IMG/VR virus record: IMGVR_UViG_3300012944_000503
Span: 1 to 21,101 of that record
Reading direction: 5' to 3' (one strand)
Length of the DNA: 21,101 nucleotides
DNA from: a virus
Shown here: positions 885-14,232 of the stretch, one piece after another
Position numbering within the stretch: the first letter of the stretch is position 1
Layout of the letters: every line of letters begins with the position of its first letter
Position numbers and translations under genes: made by a program
The notes under the pieces: generated by a model
What the model was told of the DNA's origin: nothing
What the model saw: the letters and a program-made list of their open reading frames with translations, nothing else
Database searches by the model: none

Positions 885-3800
885 TCACTCGCCGACGTGG
901 ATATGGTCGTTCAGGGCGACCTCGCCGCGATGGTACGCCGCACGGGCATCCTGCAGCGACGCGAACCTCTTCGCGGCTCGATCGGAGGCCGGCTGGGTTG
1001 CTCGGTGGAGACCGAGCACGGCTTCCATGTCGGGTGCGACGTTGAGCATGCCCGGCCTCCGATCCGCGAAGATCTGGTGCGAGAGCGTCATTCGTTTGAC
1101 GTCCTCCACGCCCGCAGGCGTCACCGGAGCGTGGATCTGCATCGCGTCGCCGTCATAGTCCGCGTTGGTTCCACGCTCGGCGAACGGGTTGAGCGTGATC
1201 GTTTTGCCTTCAGTCATCCTCGGATAGGCGCCGATGATGTTGTGGCGGGTCAGCGAGGGTGCGCGGTTCACCATGACCGGGCGTTCCCTGGTCTCGTTGA
1301 TCAACTCGTCTTTGGCGATCGGCGCCTTGTCCTCCACTAACTTCTGTGCATCGATAGCCGAATAGCCTCGACGCACGAGTCGCCCGATTACGAACTTGGA
1401 ATACATGCCCCAAAGCATGTCAGTGGGCACCCCGATCTCGTCCATGGACAGCGTCGGGTCCGGCGCGATGGTCGCGCGCCCGCTGACGTCCTGCTGGCGC
1501 TTCATCAATTTGGACTGGAAGAACCCCGAGCCCGGTCGGCTTCCCGTGATCGTCGCGATGTACCCCTTGGCGCCGCGACGCTGCACCCCCGGGCTGACCG
1601 GATCGCCGACGCCGAACAACGCGCTGACCGCGTCGTACAGGTGCCTACGCGGCGCGTGAAGCTCGGGCCCGGGCAGAACGCCCACCGAGTCCTTCAACTG
1701 GTCGTTCGCCAGAAACGCGTCGCGGTAGAGCAGGTTCGCGTCGCCGACTTGGAGCCTGCCGTCCTTGAGGGGAAGGATCGGTCGAATGACCGGCGGCGTG
1801 ACCGGCACCTTGCTGATCACGTAGGCGTCGGCGGGCTTCAGCCCGTGCGCCTGGAGAGCCGCCAGGTACTTGGCCTGCTTGACGGCATCGTCGAGCGCCG
1901 CGCCGCGCAGGCGTCTCGATCGATCGCGCAGCTCCTCGAGTCGGGACGGCACGTCGATTCGACCCAGCGCCGCGCGGAACCACTCGCCACCGTGGCCGGT
2001 TTTCTCCGTGAACTCCTTTTGCGTCAGGCCCAGGAGCCGGCGCACGGGCTCCTCGAATACGGGGTTGACAATCGGCTCGGACAGCTCGACGTGCGACCAC
2101 TTCGTCCCGGCCATTCCGCCGGTTCTCGCGGGGTCGAACATCCCGCCGGTCTCGGGACGCAGGTCCTTGGCCCTGACCATCTTGCTCGGCTCCGGGAGCA
2201 CGCCCGAGGACATTTTCAGGATGTCCGCGTCGGTGAGCGGTCCCAGCGCCTGCCTCGAGCCGGCCTTGGAGATCTTGACGCCCGCACCCGAGAGCATCGC
2301 GTGCAGCTTGTCGTACGCGAACGGCGTGCGCGGCGCGGGTGCGGGGGTGCCGAGCTGCACCGAGCGCCAGAACTCGTCGTTGCGCTGGCTCTTGATCGCC
2401 GCGGACTCGCGAAGCACGGCGCGGGCGTTGTGCGCGACGAGACCGTCGAACTCCATCTTGCCGATGCCCTTGGCTCCGTCATCGCCGCCGCGGGCCGGCT
2501 GCTGGTTGTAGTCGTAGCGCTCGGCGCCGTGCGCCGCCCAGTTGCTGTCGGTCGTCTTGAACAGCTTGAGGAAGTACGACTTGCCGACGAACACGCCTGG
2601 CACGCTCTTGCCCGTCATCGGGTCGACCACCGTCTCCTTGTCTGACAGGCCGTTGGCCTTGAGCAGGTCCTTGGCGTAGGCGACGGCGTCCCGCGCGGCG
2701 AACTGCGGGACGAGGATGGGCTCGCCTCGATGATCGGCGACCTTGCCGAGCGACGCCTCGACCAGCTGGGCCGGGTTGATGCGCGTGATGATGCCGGCGC
2801 TGGTGAGGATGACGTCGACCGGGCGACCCTTCTCGTCCTGGATCATCTGGGCGTCGGGCACGACCTTGGCGACCACCCCCTTGGCGCCGTAGCGGTTTGA
2901 GATCTTGTCGCCGACCTGCAGGGTCTCCTGCGTCTTGACCGTCGCGCTGTGGCGCTCGCCGGTCTTCGAGACATCGGTCACGATCCCCGGGTGGTCGTGC
3001 GTCCATGTCTCGACGACCTCGGCGTAGGGGCGAACGAGCGACTTGGAGAGCTTCCCTAGCAGCGCGGCGTCGCCCGTCGCGGTCTCTGGCCTCACACCGA
3101 TGATGATCGGGTCGCCCTTCTGCAGGACGGTCCCCGGCCGGGCGACGCCGCTCTCGTCGAGCGCGTCGTACTGCCGAGCCGAGTACCGCCCACCGAAGTA
3201 CGCGCGGTGCTTCTCCCTGTTGGTCTCGACATCGCCGGCCTTGCTCAGCACGTGATGGAACATGTGCTCGGACGTGAGCTTGTCCGCCGCGCCCTGGCTG
3301 ACCACGATCCCGTCGTTAGTGTTCAGGCCGCGATACGGCATGTACGCCACGCGCAGATTGGTTCCCAGCGCGAGCACGCCGTCCCTGGTGAAGTTGGACT
3401 CGGCGAGCGGCTGGCCTTCGCGCACGAGGTCTCCCTCCTTCACCGTCAGCTTGTTGTCGAGGTAGGTCTTGGCCGCGAGCGGGAGGTCGTGATCGTAGTG
3501 CAGGCGGATGGGCCCGTCGGCAGCTCGCTTCTCGCCGCTCGGAACGAAGTGGATGTAGTCTGCGTCGATCTTGTCGATGCGGCCGGCTGTCGGCGCGGTT
3601 GGCACGATCAGCCGCACCATCTCCCGCTCGACCGACATGCCCGGATTCCAAGACTCGACCTGCACCAGGGGCGCCTCGCGGTGCAGCAAGGGAAGCGCCT
3701 GCCCCTGGTGCTTCGACGCCATCAGTGCGCGGTTGCCCTGCATGCCGTTGAGCAAGGGGAGAAGGTTGGTCGTCGCGCCATACATGTCCGAGGCGTGCCG

Positions 3801-5261
3801 TATCTGGTAGGTCACCTCCGACGACGCCACGCGCTGCACGGATCCGTCCTTCATCACGTCGACGATCTTCCCCGCGCCGAGATCCCCTCCGGGGAACGCG
3901 ACCACCGCCTTGGCCATGTCGGCAGCCTTGAGGTACTCGTCCTTGCCGGTCCGGACGTTCCGCACGGGCGCGTACAGGTTGCCATGGTCGTCTCTCCGCG
4001 TGCCGATCCCGACGCGCAGGTCGACGCCGACCTTGAAGGACTCGGGCACGCGCGTGGGATCAATGATGCCGAGGTGCGTGGAATGGACGTCTCGGGCCTC
4101 GAGCGGAATCGCGCGCTCCGAAGCGATCGCGCCCTCGCCCAGCAAGGTGACGCGTGACGCCTCGTCGACAAGCTCCATCGGGTTTATCTGCATCGGGACC
4201 GCGGACAACGAGCTGGTCGTCAGGAATCCCGTGACGGCTCGCGTGAGCGGCGCGGCGGGCAGGGCTTCCTTGATTGAGCCCCGGTTGGCGTCGAGCTTCC
4301 AACCCAGCTTGTTGCGCATGGCGCGCGCGTCCAGCTGCAAGCGCTCCCTGACGAAGTCGTCCACCGAGTGGAACGTCTTGAACGCAAGGCTGTCGCGGTC
4401 GTCGACGTCGGCGGACTTGCGATGAACCTCGAGGATCTTGTTCGACGCGGCGAGCATGGCTTGTCCCGACGCCTTGTCGAACGGGCTTCCGAGCGTTACG
4501 CGGTTAACCTCCGGGTCCATCGACGTGGCCTCGAGGTACTCTCGGATGGCCCCGACGCGGGCCTCGGGCGTGGCGTGATTCCGCTTGGCCGGATGGATCA
4601 GGGCCTCGTAGAGACGCCCGACATGGGCGTCGGGAGATCGAAAAGCGTCGCGGTTGATGGCCGCGACCTGCGGTCCCCAGCTTCGAACGATGTCGTGGTG
4701 CGGGACGTCGAGCGCTCGAAGGACGGGATAGAGCGCGACGCGGGCGGTCGTGTGCCCCGGCTGCATGTACAGAAGACCCTTCTCGGGCTCCATCATGACC
4801 TTGAAGTTCGCACCCTTTGACAGGTTGAACGCCGCCTCCAGCTCCTCGTTGCCTCGCCGACGAACGTAGACGCCCGGCTTGGTCCGGAGCTGGTTGGACA
4901 CGGAGTACTCCGTGCCGTCGAGTATGAACGTGTGGCGCGGCGTGAAGTAGGGGAGATGGAGCAACGTGAATCCCTGGGCGCGGCTAGCCACCGCGCCCTG
5001 CGCGTCGCGGACGGTCAGATCGCCGCGGACGCGCTCCGACAGCGTCTTTCCCTCGAGAATGGCCATTTTCTGCTCGCGCGACGAGAACTCGCGCGGCTCG
5101 ATGCGGGCGTCGGCAAGCTCGACCGTCCACTTGCCCGCCTTCATGGGGAAGGCCTTGCCGAGACCCTGGATGGCCGCCTGCCGAATCTTCTCCCTGCGCG
5201 TGGTGCTGTCTTCGAGGACGGGCCTTAGAACCGGCTGTGTTTTGGTAGAAGCATCCGTCAT
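885..5261 (-). CDS. Phage DNA-dependent RNA polymerase, beta subunit fused to N-terminal part of beta' (1458 aa)
   Basis: The beta part spans about residues 1-995. It shows YFTPRHTFILDGTEY, a fork/rifampicin region (SSLSAVPMQINP, about 351-361), THLGIIDPTRVPE, YMPYRGLNTNDGIVVS, GDKISNRYGAKG with both active-site lysines (K786, K794), and a C-terminal GEME-like segment (GKMEFDGLVAHNARAVLRE). The beta' part starts within a few residues: GGMFDP, HVELSEPI, clamp helices, PVTPPVIRPILPL, QQDVSGRATI, VNRAPSLTRHNI and the metal-binding NADYDGD (1366-1372). The chain ends about 86 residues later, at a point matching roughly residue 540 of E. coli beta', so the bridge helix and trigger loop are absent. 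The start is ATG 5261 with AGGA nine bases upstream; ATGA overlaps the previous stop. An extension to 5444 would run through the preceding gene in another frame and shows no homology. Host-type rpoB and rpoC are longer and separate. Single-subunit T7-type polymerase is excluded. Confidence 0.93.
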   Translation of the reverse strand: MTDASTKTQPVLRPVLEDSTTRREKIRQAAIQGLGKAFPMKAGKWTVELADARIEPREFSSREQKMAILEGKTLSERVRGDLTVRDAQGAVASRAQGFTLLHLPYFTPRHTFILDGTEYSVSNQLRTKPGVYVRRRGNEELEAAFNLSKGANFKVMMEPEKGLLYMQPGHTTARVALYPVLRALDVPHHDIVRSWGPQVAAINRDAFRSPDAHVGRLYEALIHPAKRNHATPEARVGAIREYLEATSMDPEVNRVTLGSPFDKASGQAMLAASNKILEVHRKSADVDDRDSLAFKTFHSVDDFVRERLQLDARAMRNKLGWKLDANRGSIKEALPAAPLTRAVTGFLTTSSLSAVPMQINPMELVDEASRVTLLGEGAIASERAIPLEARDVHSTHLGIIDPTRVPESFKVGVDLRVGIGTRRDDHGNLYAPVRNVRTGKDEYLKAADMAKAVVAFPGGDLGAGKIVDVMKDGSVQRVASSEVTYQIRHASDMYGATTNLLPLLNGMQGNRALMASKHQGQALPLLHREAPLVQVESWNPGMSVEREMVRLIVPTAPTAGRIDKIDADYIHFVPSGEKRAADGPIRLHYDHDLPLAAKTYLDNKLTVKEGDLVREGQPLAESNFTRDGVLALGTNLRVAYMPYRGLNTNDGIVVSQGAADKLTSEHMFHHVLSKAGDVETNREKHRAYFGGRYSARQYDALDESGVARPGTVLQKGDPIIIGVRPETATGDAALLGKLSKSLVRPYAEVVETWTHDHPGIVTDVSKTGERHSATVKTQETLQVGDKISNRYGAKGVVAKVVPDAQMIQDEKGRPVDVILTSAGIITRINPAQLVEASLGKVADHRGEPILVPQFAARDAVAYAKDLLKANGLSDKETVVDPMTGKSVPGVFVGKSYFLKLFKTTDSNWAAHGAERYDYNQQPARGGDDGAKGIGKMEFDGLVAHNARAVLRESAAIKSQRNDEFWRSVQLGTPAPAPRTPFAYDKLHAMLSGAGVKISKAGSRQALGPLTDADILKMSSGVLPEPSKMVRAKDLRPETGGMFDPARTGGMAGTKWSHVELSEPIVNPVFEEPVRRLLGLTQKEFTEKTGHGGEWFRAALGRIDVPSRLEELRDRSRRLRGAALDDAVKQAKYLAALQAHGLKPADAYVISKVPVTPPVIRPILPLKDGRLQVGDANLLYRDAFLANDQLKDSVGVLPGPELHAPRRHLYDAVSALFGVGDPVSPGVQRRGAKGYIATITGSRPGSGFFQSKLMKRQQDVSGRATIAPDPTLSMDEIGVPTDMLWGMYSKFVIGRLVRRGYSAIDAQKLVEDKAPIAKDELINETRERPVMVNRAPSLTRHNIIGAYPRMTEGKTITLNPFAERGTNADYDGDAMQIHAPVTPAGVEDVKRMTLSHQIFADRRPGMLNVAPDMEAVLGLHRATQPASDRAAKRFASLQDARAAYHRGEVALNDHIHVGE

Positions 5262-5629
5262 GGGATCCTGTATGGCACTACGGCAGCTTCTTCCCCGCCA
5301 CCCGCGCCGCCAACCACTGCCGGCTGTGGGCGCTGCGCGGGCGCGTCGGTGAAGTAGGACAGGATGATCACGACCTCGCCTTCCTTGGTGAAGGTTCTGT
5401 CCTCGAATCGAATCTTGCCCCGTCCGGCCCACAGCTCGTTGCACAGCTCGTCGTAGGCGGCGATGTTCCGCGGCAGGTTGAACACCTGGGTCGTCTGCCG
5501 GATCGGCAGACGCGGTCCCTGCGCCAACGCCTGCTGTGGGATGCCGAATGGGCTCGCGATCGGGCCCTGCGTCATCTGGTTCGCCTGGTCAATCACGTCC
5601 TGAAAGCCGCCCACGTTTGGCTTGTTCAT
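5258..5629 (-). CDS. Hypothetical protein, 123 aa, between portal and RNA polymerase
   Basis: ATG at 5629-5627 lies four bases after the portal stop, with an AGGAT Shine-Dalgarno inside the portal 3' end; its stop overlaps the polymerase start (ATGA). The first 45 residues are Gln/Pro/Gly-rich and probably flexible. The central part (about 48-93) looks like a compact alpha/beta domain, with NIAAYDELCNELWAG, then GKIRFEDRTFTKEGEVVIIL, a helix followed by two or three strands. The tail is rich in Ala, Gly and Pro. I do not recognise the family. The tight packing means it is made together with the portal and polymerase, so a virion role or a polymerase-associated role are both possible, but neither is shown by the sequence. 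Confidence 0.8.
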   Translation of the reverse strand: MNKPNVGGFQDVIDQANQMTQGPIASPFGIPQQALAQGPRLPIRQTTQVFNLPRNIAAYDELCNELWAGRGKIRFEDRTFTKEGEVVIILSYFTDAPAQRPQPAVVGGAGGGEEAAVVPYRIP

Positions 5630-5633
5630 GGCG

Positions 5634-7430
5634 CTATCCTATCTGATCCGAGGCGCCAACGCCGTCCACGTCCGCGCCGCCCGCGGTCGGGTCCTGCCCG
5701 GTGCGCGCCACGCTGATCGCGGCCCTGTTCTGCTGGTGGACCGCGTTCTCCATCCGCTCCTTGACCAGCGCGTACATCGGCAGGTCGGTGGTCTGGAGTT
5801 GGTGCATCTGCGACTGGCGCGTGCCCTGGTCGAGCGGCATCAGCTGCTCCACGACGCTGTCGGCCTGGTCGATCATCTGCTGGGGGTCGTAGGCGGCGCC
5901 CTGCTGACCGAGCTGCGCCTGCGCGCGGACCCGGGCGCCAAGCTCGGTCTGGCGCTTCTGCAGCTCGACCTGCGTCTCTGCGTTCATGCGGGCGTCGTCG
6001 AGCATCTCCTGCTTCCGCTTCTTGCGCTCCTCGATCGGGTCGACGTCGAACGGCTTGCCCATCGTGGTCTTGGAGATCCAGGGACCGTTCTGGGGATCAG
6101 CCATGTTGAGCTGCATCAGCAGCGCCTTTTGCTGGACATCGTCGATGAACCTGAACGGCGCAAGCTCCGTCGGCATCGGTCCCCAGCCGAGCTTGCGGCC
6201 GGCGTTGTCGGTGATCCACTGCAGGAAGTCGTTGAGATCGCCGGTCTGGTGAACGAGCTGGTTTTCTAGGACGCGAAGCTGGATCCCCGAGCCCATCGCG
6301 GAGAACCCGCCGTAGATGAACTCTTTCGGCAGGCCCATGGCCGCGATGATGTTGTCCTCCGCCGCTTGGACTTCGCCGAGCGTCATGAGCGCACGGGCCT
6401 GCCCGCCGAGATGCGTGACCTCGGCGGGGACAGGGGACCACATGATGTGCAGCGGGTCGCGGCGCCAGCGCTTGACCGAGTGCTTCATTTCGTTGGTCCA
6501 GGTCGCCAGGTTCATCGACAGGAGCGGATCCGCGTTCCCGGTCGACTGCTTCGGACTGACGATGCGGAGCGGCACGATGTAGTCCAGCGCGATCGCCTCG
6601 TTGGCCTTGCGGAGGACGGCCGCGTAGAAGAAGAGCTTGATGGTGGATGCCAGCGGCGGGAAGCCCCACTGGGCCTCGATGCCGGCGGGCGCGTCCATCT
6701 TCATGTGGAAGACCTGGTTCTCGGCGAACTTGAAGATCTTGTCGTCCCTCATGGCCTTGAGGAACTCCATGGGCAGGCTGTCGATGAGGTGCTTGTTGTT
6801 CTTGGCGACGCGCTCCTTCATCTCCTTCGGGATCGTCCAGAAGTACTCGCTGTGCCCGGTGATGGGGTTGTAGTCGATGTCGACCAGCTTGGGGTCCCAT
6901 CGGATGATCGCGATCTTGTCGGGGCGCGTGATGGGCTTGTCGACGACCGCCTCGGGTCCAACGTCGACCTTGGCCCGGCACGAGGCGCACGTGTAGCTGA
7001 ACGAGAGCTTCTTGAGGCGGAACTTGTAGCTGACCGATCCGGCGTTGGACAGCTGGCTGCACGCCGGGCACCGCAGGAACCGCACAAACGGCGAGTACAT
7101 CGAGTAGAAGGCGTTGCCGTACACGAACTTATCGATGGCCGCCTTGATCAGCCAGCGCTTGGTCTTGAGTTTCTTGTTGTGCAGGTCCTCGTACTTGGAC
7201 TTGAGCCCCTCGTTGGTCGTGTCGTACACGATGTCCGTGATCGGGTACGTGCAGAACTTTTGAAGCGCGGCGAAGATCTGGCTGCAGTTGAAGTAGAGGT
7301 ACTCGCACAGCCGGAAGAGGTCCTTCAGCTTCCTCGGCGCGAACGCGGTGAGGAAGTCGAACAACGGCGAGCCGTGGCTCGACACGTTGTGGAAGGAGAG
7401 ATCTGCGCCACCAGGATCGTTGTCCAACAT
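5634..7430 (-). CDS. Phage portal protein with internal zinc ribbon, 598 aa
   Basis: The portal forms the dodecameric ring at one capsid vertex through which DNA is packaged and to which the tail attaches. Portal-like features are the length, the YGNAFYSMY segment (about 100-115), RWDPKLVDIDYNPITGHSEYF, a middle region with TLGEVQAAEDNIIAAMGLPKEFIYGG, and a long Gln/Glu-rich C-terminal helix and tail. Unusually, residues 121-151 hold CPAC and CASC (C121, C124, C148, C151), a four-cysteine zinc ribbon placed between two strand-rich segments. The start is ATG 7430 with AGGATAA upstream. The open frame continues further upstream but crosses the divergent regulatory region. The assignment rests on overall pattern rather than one diagnostic motif, so it is likely but not certain. 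It is the first gene of the minus-strand operon. Confidence 0.78.
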   Translation of the reverse strand: MLDNDPGGADLSFHNVSSHGSPLFDFLTAFAPRKLKDLFRLCEYLYFNCSQIFAALQKFCTYPITDIVYDTTNEGLKSKYEDLHNKKLKTKRWLIKAAIDKFVYGNAFYSMYSPFVRFLRCPACSQLSNAGSVSYKFRLKKLSFSYTCASCRAKVDVGPEAVVDKPITRPDKIAIIRWDPKLVDIDYNPITGHSEYFWTIPKEMKERVAKNNKHLIDSLPMEFLKAMRDDKIFKFAENQVFHMKMDAPAGIEAQWGFPPLASTIKLFFYAAVLRKANEAIALDYIVPLRIVSPKQSTGNADPLLSMNLATWTNEMKHSVKRWRRDPLHIMWSPVPAEVTHLGGQARALMTLGEVQAAEDNIIAAMGLPKEFIYGGFSAMGSGIQLRVLENQLVHQTGDLNDFLQWITDNAGRKLGWGPMPTELAPFRFIDDVQQKALLMQLNMADPQNGPWISKTTMGKPFDVDPIEERKKRKQEMLDDARMNAETQVELQKRQTELGARVRAQAQLGQQGAAYDPQQMIDQADSVVEQLMPLDQGTRQSQMHQLQTTDLPMYALVKERMENAVHQQNRAAISVARTGQDPTAGGADVDGVGASDQIG

Positions 7431-7503
7431 GGAGATGTTTATCCTATAAACTTTGTAGACATTGCTGCGCGCGTCGTGTAACGGTGCGCAGGAGGTTTTC
7501 CGC
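7431..7503. promoter_or_regulatory. Divergent intergenic region between the late (minus) and recombination (plus) arms
   Basis: These 73 bases are the only non-coding DNA between two divergent operons, so both transcripts probably start here or just inside the flanking genes. The region is locally AT-rich in a GC-rich genome. It contains an inverted repeat, TTTAT-cct-ATAAA, at 7438-7450. Reading leftwards, TTACAC and, 18 bases later, TACAAA resemble weak -35 and -10 boxes for the portal operon. For the plus strand, TATAAA lies 19 bases after a TTGTCC that is inside the portal start region. These box assignments are by eye and tentative. A phage-specific promoter class is equally possible. Confidence 0.45.
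7490..7495 (+). promoter_or_regulatory. Shine-Dalgarno site that sets the helicase start
   Basis: A perfect AGGAGG lies eight bases before GTG 7504. It fixes this GTG as the start rather than the alternative initiation codon at 7462, which has no comparable site. Confidence 0.85.
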
Positions 7504-9462
7504 GTGAACCTTGAGATTCGAGTCGGCGCCGCGGGCAACGGGACGCCCGTGTTCATGGCGACCGGAAGCCATCCGGCGCTGGGACGCCCGTTCGGGGCTG
7601 TGTACGATTCCGGTCGTCGGCTCTGGATGTACCCGGCGTTTTACCCTGCCTCGAAGAAGGTGTTGTCCGACCTGGAGGTGATGTCCAAGGACTTCCACGT
7701 CACGTTCTCCGATGTCGCCAGGCGTCACGTGGTGGATCTCGAGCACGTTGAGGAGAGTGTAGCGAATCGGGCGCTTCCCGTGGGGTTCGAGTTCGTTACG
7801 CCGCCCTACGATCACCAGGTTCTGGGGTTGTGCCACGCGTGGTGGATGCTCCGTGCCGCGATCTTCTACGCCCCGGGGCTTGGGAAGTCCAAGATCGCGG
7901 TCGACCTGATTCGGCTGATGCGTCACGTCGGCCAGCGCGGCACGGTCCTCGTCCTGGGACCTCTCGTCACCGTCACCAACTGGGGCCGGGAGATCGACCG
8001 GCACTCCGGCGGCCAGCTTCGGTGGGTGATCCTCCACGGCTCCCCGGCCGAGCGGGTCGACATCCTGTCCACGATCGTGGAACACCCCCCGGACGTCGTG
8101 CTTCTCACGTATGACGGAGCGCGCGCGATGTCCACCGACCTCGTACGCCGGGTGCCGTACGCCGCGGTCATATGCGACGAGTCTCACCTTGTGAAGTCGT
8201 GGGAGTCGGGCCGAACGGTCGCGACCTACGACATTGCGCAGAAGGCCTCCCGGCGAATCCTGATGACGGGGTCCCCGACGCAGGGAGATCCGCGCGACAC
8301 CTACGGCCAGTACAAGGTCCTCGGCGACTGCTTCATGCCGGAGGACTACTCGCAGTTCAAGCGCAAGTTCCTGGTGACGCCGAGCCCGCGGTCCCACGTG
8401 GTGACCGGGTTTAAGAATCTCGACGTGCTCAACGGGCGGGTGACGTTCCTGTCGCTGCACAAGACGAAGGAGGAGTGCCTCGACCTTCCGGAGCAGGTCA
8501 TCGTGGACGTTCCCTACGTGTTGTCCAGGACGCAGAAGGTGGTGCACAACCAGCTTGTCGAGCAGATGGAGGTCGATCCTAACATCCTCGCCATCCTCAT
8601 GTTCGGACGACAGGCGTCGCTCCCGCCAGCGTCCCGCATGCCTCATCGCGCGGCGATGTTGATCAAGCTGCTGCAGATCGCGTCGGGGTTCCTCATCACC
8701 AATCCGATCGACGACGCGTTCTGCGACCAGGCAGAGCCCCATGGCTGCCGGCATCTCGAGGCCTGCGTCGAGGCCCGGATCCGCCCGCACACCCCTCGCT
8801 GCCTGGTGGACTCGACGAAGCTCCCCGACGTGCTCACGACGTTCGATGAGAATCCCAAGCTCGACGCGACCGAGGGGCTGCTCGAGATGATCCTGGCCGA
8901 CCCCGTCAACAAGACGATCATCTGGTGCACGTTCGAGAACGAGTTGAACATCGTGTCCGCCATGCTCGATCGGCGAGGGTGGGGTCACGTCCGGGTCGAC
9001 GGGTCCAACAGCCGGGAGGCCCAGGGGCTTATCGATCAGTTCACCGCGGACGCCGGACTGCGCGTGTACCTGGCGCAGGTCTCGACGGGCGTCGGGGTGA
9101 CGATCAACGCGGCCTCCTACATGATCTACTACGCGCTTCCGTTCTCGCTGATCGTCTACGAGCAATCCAAGGACCGGAACTACCGGATCGGGCAGACACG
9201 GAAGGTTACGGTGTATAGGATGCAGGGCGAGGGGACGCCCGAGCCGGCGATCGCTCGCCTTCTCGACGTCAAGATCGACGTCGACGATGCGCTCACGCGA
9301 CGTACTGATTGCATGCGATGCGAGCACAATCCCACGTGCATCCCGGCGGGCGTTCATCCGTTTGACGCCGGGTGCTCCGTGTACAAGAGGACCATTGACA
9401 GGCCGGTCACGCGGGCTCGCTCGTTCGAGGGAGCCGACGCGCCGGACATGGAGGAACCTTGA
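7504..9462 (+). CDS. SNF2/DEAD-like superfamily 2 helicase/ATPase with two four-cysteine modules, 652 aa
   Basis: The protein carries SF2 motifs in order: Q-like PPYDHQ, Walker A APGLGKSK (K128), motif Ia-like LVLGPLVTVTNW, Walker B DESH (225-228), motif III LMTGSPTQ, motif V STGVGVTINAA, and motif VI QSKDRNYRIGQT (R561), a pattern typical of the SNF2 branch. It should use ATP to translocate on or remodel DNA. Two cysteine modules are inserted: C407, C415, C421, C433 between the RecA lobes, and C603, C606, C612, C624 near the C-terminus. Both end C-x5-C-x11-C, which suggests duplicated zinc or Fe-S sites. The gene opens the plus-strand operon and its TGA overlaps the TTG start of the next gene. 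A role in phage recombination or replication fits the nearby RecB-like nuclease. Confidence 0.88.
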   Translation: MNLEIRVGAAGNGTPVFMATGSHPALGRPFGAVYDSGRRLWMYPAFYPASKKVLSDLEVMSKDFHVTFSDVARRHVVDLEHVEESVANRALPVGFEFVTPPYDHQVLGLCHAWWMLRAAIFYAPGLGKSKIAVDLIRLMRHVGQRGTVLVLGPLVTVTNWGREIDRHSGGQLRWVILHGSPAERVDILSTIVEHPPDVVLLTYDGARAMSTDLVRRVPYAAVICDESHLVKSWESGRTVATYDIAQKASRRILMTGSPTQGDPRDTYGQYKVLGDCFMPEDYSQFKRKFLVTPSPRSHVVTGFKNLDVLNGRVTFLSLHKTKEECLDLPEQVIVDVPYVLSRTQKVVHNQLVEQMEVDPNILAILMFGRQASLPPASRMPHRAAMLIKLLQIASGFLITNPIDDAFCDQAEPHGCRHLEACVEARIRPHTPRCLVDSTKLPDVLTTFDENPKLDATEGLLEMILADPVNKTIIWCTFENELNIVSAMLDRRGWGHVRVDGSNSREAQGLIDQFTADAGLRVYLAQVSTGVGVTINAASYMIYYALPFSLIVYEQSKDRNYRIGQTRKVTVYRMQGEGTPEPAIARLLDVKIDVDDALTRRTDCMRCEHNPTCIPAGVHPFDAGCSVYKRTIDRPVTRARSFEGADAPDMEEP

Positions 9463-11754: not shown

Positions 11755-11912
11755 TGCGACGAATCACCGCCAGCCCCCGCGTTCGGGAGGCGGGCCTGTT
11801 CCTACTACGCGTCGCCACGCTGGGCTCGGCGGTCCTGGTACTCAAGGACCCCAAGGCCCGCGCGGCTGCGATCAACCAGCTCGGTCAGATGGCGCGCCAA
11901 CTGACCGGATGA
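11754..11912 (+). CDS. One-helix small protein, 52 aa
   Basis: ATG 11754 is coupled to the previous stop (TGATG) and the frame ends at 11912. Residues 14-30 (GLFLLRVATLGSAVLVL) form one moderately hydrophobic helix with a single Arg, followed by a basic and Gln-rich helix. It may be a single-pass membrane protein or a small helical hairpin. The evidence for coding is the stop/start overlap and the gap-free packing. No function can be proposed. Confidence 0.5.
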   Translation: MRRITASPRVREAGLFLLRVATLGSAVLVLKDPKARAAAINQLGQMARQLTG

Positions 11913-11925
11913 CTCCAAGGACCTC

Positions 11926-12873
11926 ATGAGCAACGCAACCGAGGAAGATACGCAGGCGGTGAAGTTCAAGCCGCCATTCGTGGCGTTCGCCGACATCGAA
12001 ATCGGCGACAACATCAGCGATCAGAAGACGGGACGGATGAAGCTCGACCTCGAGAACTCGGTGGATCTCGAATTCACGCTCAGCATCGATCGGGAGGGGT
12101 TGATCTCGCCCCTAGCCGTTCGGGAGGGTGGGCCTGCTCGAACCACCGGCAAGCGCAAGGTCGTGCTCGACTGTGGATACCGCAGGTACGGCGCGATCGG
12201 GCTGCTTCGCGAGAACAAGGTTCCGGGGCAGAAGACGAAGGCGTCGTCCTGGAACCAGATCCCGGTTCGCTACGTGAAGGGCGATGAGGAGGACCAGGAT
12301 GTCCGAAACCTAGTGGAGAACCTCCAGCGCCTCAATCTCGATCCTTACCAGGAGGGCGCCGCGATCAAGGCGTACATGGAGAAGCATAAGACGACGCAGA
12401 CCGAGGTCGCCCGCCGGCTCGGAAAGTCCGAGCCCTGGGTGTCCCAGCGCTTGTCCATGCTCCGCAACTCCAGCGATGAGGTGAAGCAGGCATACGACGA
12501 CGGCATCATTTCCGCGACGATGGTCCGGGAGATCACGGATCTGCCCAAGGACAAGCAGCCGGGCCTGGTCCAATCCCTACGCAAGCAGGCCGCCTCGGGC
12601 AAGTATCCGACGGTAGAGGACGTCAAGGAGGACATTGCCAAGATCCCATCGCCGAAGAAGAAGACTGGGCGCAAGGCGAACACGTTCGACCAGGACAAGA
12701 TCATCCTTGCCAAGGAGACTTACGTGGACAAGAAGATCACGCTACGGCCGCGCCCGGCCCTACTGGAGGCGCTCGGCACGCTCGTCAATCGCGAGCAGCG
12801 TCACGCGACGGACAAGACCAAGTATCAGCTTCAGGCCATCGAATACGTGCTCGGCCTGCGTGACACCCTGTGA
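11926..12873 (+). CDS. ParB/Spo0J-family DNA-binding protein, 315 aa
   Basis: The N-terminal half has ParB-family features: GLISPLAVRE, the GYRR motif (84-87) equivalent to the GxRR nucleotide-binding box, and ENLQR-NLDPYQE (131-143). A helix-turn-helix follows at about 156-180 (TTQTEVARRLGKSEPWVSQR). In ParB proteins these regions bind CTP and a centromere-like site. The C-terminal part is basic (SPKKKTGRKA) and ends in a helical region that could dimerise. No ParA ATPase is in the window, so plasmid-style partition is not supported. Lone ParB-like proteins in phages may instead act as regulators or DNA organisers. ATG 11926 has AAGGA upstream. The TGA overlaps the next GTG. Confidence 0.85.
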   Translation: MSNATEEDTQAVKFKPPFVAFADIEIGDNISDQKTGRMKLDLENSVDLEFTLSIDREGLISPLAVREGGPARTTGKRKVVLDCGYRRYGAIGLLRENKVPGQKTKASSWNQIPVRYVKGDEEDQDVRNLVENLQRLNLDPYQEGAAIKAYMEKHKTTQTEVARRLGKSEPWVSQRLSMLRNSSDEVKQAYDDGIISATMVREITDLPKDKQPGLVQSLRKQAASGKYPTVEDVKEDIAKIPSPKKKTGRKANTFDQDKIILAKETYVDKKITLRPRPALLEALGTLVNREQRHATDKTKYQLQAIEYVLGLRDTL

Positions 12874-13376
12874 AGCTCGCCGAGTACGTGATGTCCCTGC
12901 GCGAGGGTGCGGATCCTCGCAGGGACGCCTCGTTGGACCCCGTGGCGCGCGAGGTCGTCATTCAGCTCCGCGATCACGCGCCGCCCACGCTTCTGGAGCG
13001 ACTCGCGAAGCTGGACCGGATCGGACTGCTCAATGGCGATGTGCTGATGTCGTTGATCGCGCAGGCGCCCATCGATCCGCTCAACTTGTTCGCCACGATC
13101 CAGCAGAACAGCCCGGGCGAGTGGGTGTTCAGCGGGATCGACTTCGGCGTGGTTCGCGTGCTCGCGCGAAACGACGCGGGCAACGTCGCGGCCGCGGTGC
13201 GGATCGACTTGATGGACTCCAGTGTCAGCACGCTGGTTCTCAACCAGGCGGGGCAGCTCACGCCGTTCCGCCGCTACGAGCCCGAGGGGCCAGAGATCCT
13301 GGAGCGGGTCCAGGCGATGTGCGACGCGGCGATCGCGGCCGCGGCTAGGGAATTTATGCGGACTCGGCCGAGCTGA
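12870..13376 (+). CDS. Hypothetical protein, 168 aa, coupled to ParB-like gene
   Basis: It starts at GTG 12870, overlapping the ParB-like stop (GTGA), and ends 23 bases inside the 3' end of the opposite-strand sigma gene. The N-terminal 80 residues look helical (REVVIQLRDHA, LLERLAKLDRIGLL). The middle looks strand-rich (EWVFSGIDFGVVRVLARND, AAAVRIDLMDSSVSTLVL), and the C-terminus is an Ala-rich helix. I do not recognise the family. Coupling to the ParB-like gene suggests the two products work together, which is inference. Confidence 0.75.
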   Translation: MKLAEYVMSLREGADPRRDASLDPVAREVVIQLRDHAPPTLLERLAKLDRIGLLNGDVLMSLIAQAPIDPLNLFATIQQNSPGEWVFSGIDFGVVRVLARNDAGNVAAAVRIDLMDSSVSTLVLNQAGQLTPFRRYEPEGPEILERVQAMCDAAIAAAAREFMRTRPS

Positions 13377-14232
13377 CTAGGCCGAAGAGCGCGGCGTCCG
13401 CCTCGAGGTCGCGGCGGAGCACGTCGGACTCGAGGTCGCGTCGAACGAGACGGAGCGCGATGACCTTGATTTGCCGGACACGCTCCGGGGTCATTGACAT
13501 GATCTTTCCGATCTGTTCGAGGCTGCGAGGCTCGTTCCGGACACCGAAGTGAAGGCGGATGATGGTCGCCTCGCGCGTGGGTAGTTTGGACAACGCTGCC
13601 TCGAGCAGATCGGAGAGCTGTTTCGCGTGGTATTCGCTCGCAATTTCGACGCCTGCGCAAAGCTCCTCGTCACACACGTCTTCGATTCGGACGACGGGGT
13701 AGGTGACGCACTCGACGGCGGACGCCGCCTCCGAGCGGGGACCGTGCTGGGCTGCCGCCATTCGCTGCGCGTGTGCCTGCTTGCGCTGCTCCTTCTGCTT
13801 GTGTGTAGGGATGTGGACCGTCGAGCTGGACGCGTAGTCCTGGTCCATCATCTCCTTGTAGACCCAAGTCCCCGCGTAAGTGAGGAACCTAATGTACGGC
13901 GTCCTCTCGGGATTGAAGTGCCCCGGCTCGATCGCGCGCAGCAGGCCGAGGTTGCCGGCGGCGATGTAGTCCTGGAGGGCGTTTCGGTCGTTGGTCTTGC
14001 GATGCGCTTGGCGGACCACGAAACGGAGGTGGCTCTGGACCACGATGTCCCGCGCCCGCACGTCCCTGTGCCGCTGCCACAGCCGGATCAGGACGCGCTC
14101 CTCGTGGGGGTCCGTCACCGGCCGGGTGTTTCCTATGCTCGCGTAGTACGAGCGGCGGCTGTCCTCTTCGTCCGCCAGGTGGCGGGCCACACGCGGACGG
14201 TCGCTTGTCCTAGGACGAAAAGACTGATCCAT
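13354..14232 (-). CDS. Sigma-70 family RNA polymerase sigma factor, 292 aa
   Basis: Region 2 spans about 44-134, with the core-binding AAGNLGLLRAIE (91-102) and the region 2.3-2.4 segment FLTYAGTWVYKEMMDQDY. Region 3 begins with STVHIPTHKQKEQRK (137-151), closely like the start of region 3 in primary sigmas. Region 4 (about 208-268) has LSKLPTREATIIRLHFGV and the helix-turn-helix RSLEQIGKIMSMTPERVRQIK. It should bind an RNA polymerase core and recognise -10 and -35 elements. The aromatic pair of region 2.3 (WW in E. coli) appears as TW here, and the positions that read the -10 box also differ, so its promoters may be non-standard. It is the only minus-strand gene in the right arm. It could serve the host core or the phage polymerase chain at 5261-885. 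Confidence 0.9.
   Translation of the reverse strand: MDQSFRPRTSDRPRVARHLADEEDSRRSYYASIGNTRPVTDPHEERVLIRLWQRHRDVRARDIVVQSHLRFVVRQAHRKTNDRNALQDYIAAGNLGLLRAIEPGHFNPERTPYIRFLTYAGTWVYKEMMDQDYASSSTVHIPTHKQKEQRKQAHAQRMAAAQHGPRSEAASAVECVTYPVVRIEDVCDEELCAGVEIASEYHAKQLSDLLEAALSKLPTREATIIRLHFGVRNEPRSLEQIGKIMSMTPERVRQIKVIALRLVRRDLESDVLRRDLEADAALFGLVSSAESA

What the first reader, a model, noticed from the sequence alone, without database searches (positions are those of the whole stretch)
13354..14232. Phage-encoded sigma factor alongside a phage polymerase core
The sigma keeps regions 2, 3 and 4, and the polymerase chain keeps a charged beta' clamp-helix pair (near RLEELRDRSRRLRG) that binds sigma region 2. 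phiKZ-type enzymes work without a classical sigma. A phage with both could form its own holoenzyme. Alternatively the sigma redirects host polymerase early and the phage core acts late.
Basis: inference. Interest (0 to 1): 0.75.

Follow-up and report, generated by a model that had tools for sequence, protein, structure and literature searches.

The report
Phage polymerase with its own sigma
This phage family carries both a stripped-down copy of the bacterial RNA polymerase and a true sigma factor that has stayed with it through deep evolution, so the two probably form one virus-owned transcription machine, a pairing that published reviews say phages do not have.

Summary
The sigma gene (13354-14232, minus strand) is real: Pfam finds region 4 at 1e-12 and region 2 at 8e-6, but not region 3. 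The polymerase gene (885-5261) is beta fused to the first third of beta'; in relatives the rest of beta' is a separate gene, here just off the window. They keep the hairpin but have lost the charged sigma contacts R275 and E295. The phage sigma has lost the partner residue E407. Among 80 viral sigma loci, 17 of 17 on polymerase-bearing contigs lack an acidic 407, and 39 of 39 on polymerase-free contigs of at least 50 kb keep it. All 18 polymerase-linked sigmas in the tree lie in one clade. Two contigs found later agreed; one (L028) does not. In the relative Arash, the published virion proteome lists both polymerase pieces and a second sigma-like protein, but not this sigma. Best reading: a sigma dedicated to the phage's own, virion-carried core. 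Binding was not tested, and the interface change may be a single event. Reviews describe phage polymerases and recognisable sigmas as mutually exclusive; this lineage breaks that rule.

The parts
13354..14232 (-). sigma factor gene (sigma-A), 292 aa, regions 2 and 4, weak region 3
13927..13977 (-). sigma region 2.2 (LQDYIAAGNLGLLRAIE, residues 86-102), the core-binding helix; positions equivalent to sigma70 Q406/E407 are A91/A92 (DNA 13957-13962)
13441..13527 (-). sigma region 4 helix-turn-helix (residues 236-264)
885..5261 (-). RNA polymerase gene: beta fused to the N-terminal part of beta', 1458 aa (an in-frame GTG upstream would start at 5444)
1614..1742 (-). true beta' clamp helices (residues 1174-1216); R275 equivalent is A1185 (DNA 1707-1709)
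1902..1943 (-).
1146..1166 (-). beta' catalytic motif NADYDGD (residues 1366-1372)
2877..2912 (-). beta motif GDKISNRYGAKG (residues 784-795) with the two lysines of the beta barrel
   Evidence: catalytic role of two basic residues from PMC7824862 passages
5258..5629 (-). small ORF (123 aa) between portal and polymerase, conserved in the lineage, function unknown
5634..7556 (-). portal protein (homologous to the gene annotated portal in Arash, gp204)
7462..9462 (+). SNF2-type helicase, divergent from the portal-polymerase genes; recurs in this block

Best explanation
The sigma is the promoter-specificity subunit of the phage's own polymerase. The core is two polypeptides (beta fused to beta'N, plus a separate beta'C) with no detected alpha. 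In the relative Arash the core is packed in the virion with a second, shorter sigma-like protein (sigma-B, gp10), so it probably enters with the DNA and starts early transcription. Sigma-A, absent from the reported virion proteome, would be made in the cell and redirect the same core to a later gene class. Shown: both genes, the conserved block, co-inheritance, the matched change at the sigma/clamp contact, a published virion location for core and sigma-B in one relative, and promoter-like -10 motifs in two relatives. Inferred: physical binding, order of use, and which sigma reads which promoter.
For: (1) Co-occurrence: of 17 polymerase-bearing records of at least 80 kb, 14 have sigma-A, 15 have a sigma-B match, 17 have at least one (my count). 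(2) Gene order sigma - SNF2 helicase - portal - small ORF - polymerase - beta'C recurs in the IMG/VR relatives, and a like order in a Desulfovibrio and a Cloacimonadota contig. (3) Tree: all 18 polymerase-linked sigmas plus 6 short fragments are one side of a branch (99/94); all polymerase-free phage sigmas from contigs of at least 50 kb (23 rows) and 7 bacterial-type rows are on the other. (4) Interface: sigma32 E81 (E407 of sigma70 by alignment) and beta' R275 are listed among interface residues (PMC10216364); R275Q and E295K in beta' impair holoenzyme formation (PMC8321222). In the lineage R275 is lost in 20 of 20 and E295 in 20 of 20 clamp sequences, against 0 of 5 bacterial controls; 407 is non-acidic in 17 of 17 polymerase-bearing contigs and acidic in 39 of 39 polymerase-free contigs of at least 50 kb. 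(5) Two contigs found afterwards have N407 and Q275. (6) Arash virions: gp206 3516 spectra (top), gp216 1210, sigma-B gp10 467; gp196 (sigma-A) not in the table. (7) Arash GGTATAA 41 times against 8.8 expected, 40 on one strand; in contig G013 CCTATAAT 11 against 0.1, 10 on one strand.
Against: No binding or transcription was tested. The 407/275 change may be one old event inherited by all, so the counts are not independent. Exception: L028 has the polymerase but its sigma keeps E407; its beta' has T275 and a shorter clamp hairpin. Three polymerase contigs of 101-156 kb show no sigma-A, only sigma-B. Sigma-B itself has E or K at the aligned position, so the contact logic does not extend to it (read by eye). 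Changes at the sigma 2.2 contact residues are reported only to weaken binding (PMC8321222). Arash virions also contained many metabolic enzymes, and its authors note possible carry-over. The window's own phage has no proteome.
Confidence: 0.62

Rival explanations
1. Sigma-A redirects the host core, as T4 gp55 does, while the phage core works with sigma-B or another factor.
For: Published rule: phages with recognisable sigmas use the host core (PMC7598289 and PMC7824862 passages). Region 4 and the GN..GL core of region 2.2 are kept. Sigma-A is not in the Arash virion table while core and sigma-B are. L028 keeps E407. Some contigs have the polymerase and sigma-B but no sigma-A found.
Against: Sigmas of polymerase-free phages keep acidic 407 (39 of 39 contigs of at least 50 kb), sigma-A does not; sigmas of this clade were seen without the polymerase only on fragments of 9-33 kb.
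Confidence: 0.22
2. Sigma-A works with both cores, the host's early and the phage's later.
For: The clamp hairpin keeps N266, Y269 and mostly A302; sigma region 2.2 keeps D403 and G408-N409.
Against: The contact residues have shifted on both sides, which favours a private pair.
Confidence: 0.11
3. The co-inheritance is only genome linkage: sigma and polymerase sit in one conserved block and do not interact; the 407 change is drift.
For: Other genes (SNF2, portal) are co-inherited in the same block; one clade, so possibly one change.
Against: The change sits at a published sigma-core contact and is matched by loss of the partner residues in beta'; two later-found, diverged contigs show other residues at both sites (N and Q).
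Confidence: 0.05

Closest known systems
phiKZ/AR9-type jumbo phage multisubunit RNA polymerases
   Same: beta/beta' homologues without alpha; beta' in two proteins; AR9 uses a dedicated specificity subunit (gp226) whose fold is sigma-like (PMC9209446 passages)
   Different: Here beta is unsplit and fused to beta'N, one polymerase gene set per record by PF00623, and the sigma is recognisable by sequence. PMC7598289 and PMC7824862 passages say RNAP-bearing jumbo phages have no recognisable sigma.
Salmonella phage Arash ('Arashvirus') and Vibrio phages D69/D148/D181
   Same: Same fused polymerase at 33-35% identity; portal - small ORF - polymerase order in Arash and D69; beta'C and two sigma-like genes in Arash and D69
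   Different: Region 4 of their sigma-A is not detected by Pfam; in D69 the sigma is on the opposite strand to the polymerase.
Phage sigma factors that use host core (T4 gp55 type and group 2 jumbo phages)
   Same: Phage-borne sigma with a -10 binding domain
   Different: Those phages lack a polymerase (PMC7824862 passages); the polymerase-free phage sigmas sampled keep acidic 407.
Thermus phage P23-45 tail-tape-fused virion RNA polymerase
   Same: A virion-borne polymerase related to cellular enzymes (PMC10770324, start of abstract in search listing only)
   Different: Different architecture by that abstract; sigma status not read here.

Membership tests
sigma-70 family | region 2 (core and -10 binding) | tested here: met
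   Pfam PF04542 26.0 bits, cut-off 24
sigma-70 family | region 4 helix-turn-helix | tested here: met
   Pfam PF04545 47.9 bits, cut-off 24.1
sigma-70 family | region 3 | tested here: inconclusive
   not reported by Pfam; one helix follows region 2 in the model, then low confidence
sigma-70 family | binds an RNA polymerase core | not testable with these tools
   no co-folding of two chains or binding assay on hand
phiKZ/AR9-type phage RNA polymerase | beta and beta' homologues with both catalytic motifs | tested here: met
   NADYDGD and GDK..KG present
phiKZ/AR9-type phage RNA polymerase | no alpha subunit | tested here: met
   PF01000 in 0 of 10 related records of 156-188 kb, in 13 of 14 control genomes; the window's own record is a fragment and was not in that call
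phiKZ/AR9-type phage RNA polymerase | beta split into two or more proteins | tested here: not met
   one ORF holds beta and beta'N
phiKZ/AR9-type phage RNA polymerase | two polymerases per genome, virion and non-virion | tested here: inconclusive
   PF00623 found in one gene per related record; but it found none in phiKZ, so a diverged second copy could be missed
phiKZ/AR9-type phage RNA polymerase | no sequence-recognisable sigma | tested here: not met
   sigma in the window and in 20 of 28 records, the other 8 being 5-57 kb
T4 gp55-type host-core sigma | phage has no polymerase of its own | tested here: not met

The most novel reading that the evidence does not exclude
The lineage runs a complete virus-owned sigma cascade: a minimal alpha-less two-chain core is injected already paired with sigma-B, and sigma-A made in the cell then reprograms that same core. 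It would be a bacterial-style holoenzyme reduced to three polypeptides and freed from the host.
Probability: 0.42. Interest if true: 0.9.

Novelty: new variant of a known kind. Interest (0 to 1): 0.77.

Why it matters
The reviews read here describe two strategies: phages with their own multisubunit polymerase and no recognisable sigma, or phages with a sigma that borrow the host core. This lineage has both, in isolated phages (Arash, Vibrio D69) and in contigs filed under Desulfovibrio. If the pair works together, it is the smallest sigma-dependent bacterial-type enzyme I know of (recalled), simple enough to rebuild from three chains, and a test case for how a specificity factor and its core co-evolve. 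It also bears on whether AR9 gp226 and phiKZ gp68 are eroded sigmas.

Tried and rejected
Co-folding of sigma with the clamp helices could not be run (single-chain tool). AlphaFold of the polymerase fragment (residues 600-1458) gave mean pLDDT 69 and pTM 0.42; only its local helices are used. Foldseek hits of both models to sigma and beta' chains agree with the fold family but have low TM-scores (0.2-0.4), so no docking is claimed. A sigma-region-4 query as a control brought 80 sigmaA-like loci, host-type by their similarity: 77 of 77 readable ones have E407 (L089, L094, L137 lack the region). I treat these as a control for host-type sigma only. YerA41, Carin-5, Va2 and RHph_Y65 have polymerase genes, but the small proteins upstream gave no sigma hit in Pfam, and phrog_351 found none in those records, although the Carin-5 record calls one 'RNA pol sigma factor'; an A4 search gave only a weak 7e-4 hit in YerA41. 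Not pursued. The same PHROG search gave only 0.003 for T4, so diverged sigmas can be missed. Vibrio phage 1.031.O has a beta' gene and a sigma with I at 407 and S at 275 (residue 407 read by eye); it is outside the counts. Promoter search in the window itself gave nothing: GGTATAA 0, TATAAT 0; the region upstream of the sigma was read and showed no clear element. The Klebsiella phage sigma control (L084) was translated in the wrong frame and dropped before the counts. loci were left out of the counts because its pattern contains the residues tested. Desulfovibrio fragment L291 (9 kb) is too short to test for sigma. L028 was not in the list, so it is reported as an exception outside the 17 of 17.

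Full report
What is in the window. The window is a 21,101-base fragment of a virus record. It holds a polymerase gene at 885-5261 (-), a small ORF, a portal gene at 5634-7556 (-), a divergent SNF2-type helicase at 7462-9462 (+), two PD-(D/E)XK nuclease genes, a ParB-like gene, the sigma gene at 13354-14232 (-), and a gene with primase-like domains. The sigma is genuine: region 4 at 9.7e-13 and region 2 at 8e-6 in Pfam, both over cut-off, with RpoS its best PDB match. AlphaFold gives a confident region 2 and region 4 with a low-confidence stretch between them (mean pLDDT 81.7); Foldseek ranks sigma chains of transcription initiation complexes first.

The polymerase. One chain of 1458 aa carries beta and then beta' up to about 85 residues past NADYDGD. 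The zinc-binding N-terminal part of beta' is missing relative to Salmonella beta'. In the 96% relative L002 the remaining part of beta' is a separate gene 867 bases downstream (Rpb1_5 match). In the window that gene would start at or just beyond the left edge (inferred). No alpha-subunit match was found in 10 of 10 related records of 156-188 kb, against 13 of 14 control genomes with one.

RLEELRDRSRRLRG is residues 1107-1120 and aligns with roughly residues 210-225 of Salmonella beta'. The sigma-binding clamp helices are residues 1174-1216: Y269 and N266 are kept in 20 of 20 lineage sequences, while R275 and E295 are lost in 20 of 20; all 5 bacterial controls keep R275, R278 and E295. The structure model shows two adjacent helices there. 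Within the lineage this hairpin is slightly less conserved (mean majority fraction 0.65) than the beta' part as a whole (0.71), so conservation alone does not mark it as a binding site.

Relatives. 25 IMG/VR loci encode the polymerase, as do Salmonella phage Arash and Vibrio phages D69, D148 and D181 at 33-35% identity, and contigs filed under Desulfovibrio and Cloacimonadota at 42-43% over the searched fragment. Gene order sigma - SNF2 (opposite strand) - portal - small ORF - polymerase - beta'C is kept through most IMG/VR relatives with enough flank; the Desulfovibrio and Cloacimonadota contigs show a sigma, a large ORF on the opposite strand, a portal-like ORF and the polymerase in the same order (read from ORF order, the middle two not tested by search). 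PHROG sigma hits occur in 20 of 28 records, the window included; the 8 without are 5-57 kb long. Of 17 polymerase-bearing records of at least 80 kb (14 IMG/VR contigs, Arash, D69, D181), 14 have sigma-A, 15 a second sigma-like match and all 17 at least one (my count). Three of these (101,735, 101,886 and 156,269 bases) have only the second kind, also with alignment A4 as query.

The test that separates host-core from phage-core sigmas. Published interface residues are D77, E81, I84 and M87 of sigma32 against R275, R278, R281, L282, L285, I291, E295 and M298 of the clamp helix (PMC10216364, passages), and R275Q, E295K and A302D impair holoenzyme formation (PMC8321222, passages). The latter paper also reports endosymbionts in which sigma E407A occurs together with substitutions at 275 and 302. 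Sigma-A here reads D-x-I-A-A-G-N, so Q406 and E407 are both alanine. One search gathered 80 sigma loci with patterns that do not include residues 406-407. A search for the beta domain PF00562, with the contigs, labels them: polymerase-bearing 17, of which 0 have an acidic 407; polymerase-free of at least 50 kb 39, of which 39 acidic; polymerase-free under 50 kb 24, of which 16 acidic and 8 not (L175, L176, L177, L185, L188, L196, L197, L214; 9-33 kb fragments in which a polymerase could be off the end). Some polymerase-free contigs may be host DNA, for instance those with RpoS-like sigmas.

Phylogeny and its limit. In an IQ-TREE tree of 67 sigmas, all 18 polymerase-linked ones and 6 of the fragments form one side of a branch with support 99/94; all 23 polymerase-free rows from contigs of at least 50 kb and 7 bacterial-type rows are on the other. 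The tool warns of long branches, L028 and L189 among them. Sigma and polymerase have therefore travelled together, but the residue change may have happened once, and the counts above are not independent. L028 branches first with a long branch; it bears the polymerase yet keeps S-E at 406-407, and its beta' has T275 and a shorter hairpin. It is the one clear exception.

Check on sequences found later. The Desulfovibrio sp. An276 contig and the Cloacimonadota contig, found after the pattern was seen, each carry the fused polymerase and a diverged sigma on the same contig (overlap shown). Their region 2.2 reads A-L-Q-N, so 407 is N in both, and beta' has Q275 and S278. The alignment of 407 in these two was made by eye.

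Where the core acts. In the Arash paper (PMC10585845, section 16 read whole) gp206, the fused chain, has the most spectra in purified particles (3516; major capsid protein 1333), gp216 (beta'C) has 1210, and gp10, annotated sigma, has 467 spectra and 24 unique peptides. gp10 lies among virion genes at 11892-12596 and is the short sigma-like protein (Pfam Sigma70_r3 9e-9; region 2 below cut-off). gp196, the sigma-A counterpart, is not in the table. The authors themselves suggest early transcription or carry-over, and other metabolic enzymes were also detected. That section does not relate sigma to the phage core beyond listing it as a polymerase subunit.

Promoters. In 80 Arash intergenic regions a motif GGTATAAG..AA stands out (log-likelihood ratio 133 against 45-57 in six shuffles); genome-wide GGTATAA occurs 41 times against 8.8 expected, 40 on the minus strand. 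In contig G013 CCTATAAT occurs 11 times against 0.1 expected, 10 on one strand, with an ATG about a dozen bases further on in several cases. Both look like -10 elements without a clear -35, as a sigma2-type reader would want; which enzyme reads them is unknown. The GC-rich window shows neither.

Comparison with the literature. PMC7598289 and PMC7824862 (passages) state that jumbo phages with their own polymerases encode no recognisable sigma and that sigma-bearing ones lack polymerases; PMC13282480 (2026 review, passages) repeats this. AR9 gp226 and phiKZ gp68 are sigma-like only in structure (PMC9209446 passages). My searches found no paper that discusses a recognisable phage sigma working with a phage multisubunit core, going by titles, abstract starts and the passages read; the library lacks most subscription journals and all bioRxiv preprints.

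Verdict. A recognisable sigma and an alpha-less, fused two-chain polymerase form a conserved unit in a lineage of roughly 150-190 kb phages. The most likely function is a private holoenzyme (0.62), with use by host core as main rival (0.22).

Noticed in passing
L012:10022-14764 and L021:9983-14878: A GNAT acetyltransferase domain sits inside the beta part of the polymerase gene, in frame (Pfam 3.6e-7 and 1.1e-5), near window residue 581.
   Followed up: partly
L015:9995-15409 (also L016, L017) and L010, L011, L019, L024, L025: In-frame inserts of about 340-350 aa in the polymerase gene at window residues ~788 and ~408; the first has a weak LAGLIDADG match, suggesting inteins. In Vibrio phage D181 the gene is interrupted by a homing endonuclease gene.
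   Followed up: partly
L022:15086-18409, L013, L023, L026: The beta'C gene product is 975-1107 aa, with a long C-terminal extension absent elsewhere.
   Followed up: no
Salmonella phage Arash OQ632216.1, whole genome: GGTATAAG promoter-like motif, 30 of 31 copies on one strand.
   Followed up: yes
contig G013 (L281-L289): CCTATAATT motif with a start codon about a dozen bases downstream at several sites, suggesting near-leaderless transcripts.
   Followed up: partly
contig G001 start (L273:1-11200): ACTGCATG occurs 19 times, all on one strand, most of them in a longer repeated stretch GACTGCATGACNTGCCTGGT that would read DCMTCLV; unexplained.
   Followed up: no
L290 (Desulfovibrio sp. An276 contig, 64 kb) and L291 (D. 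piger, 9 kb): Polymerase-bearing phage DNA in two isolate assemblies, pointing to Desulfovibrio as a host of this lineage.
   Followed up: partly
L063:3041-3631 (Cobetia phage Carin-5): A protein annotated 'RNA pol sigma factor' about a dozen bases upstream of a polymerase gene, not confirmed by Pfam; a possible second, diverged sigma-polymerase pairing.
   Followed up: partly
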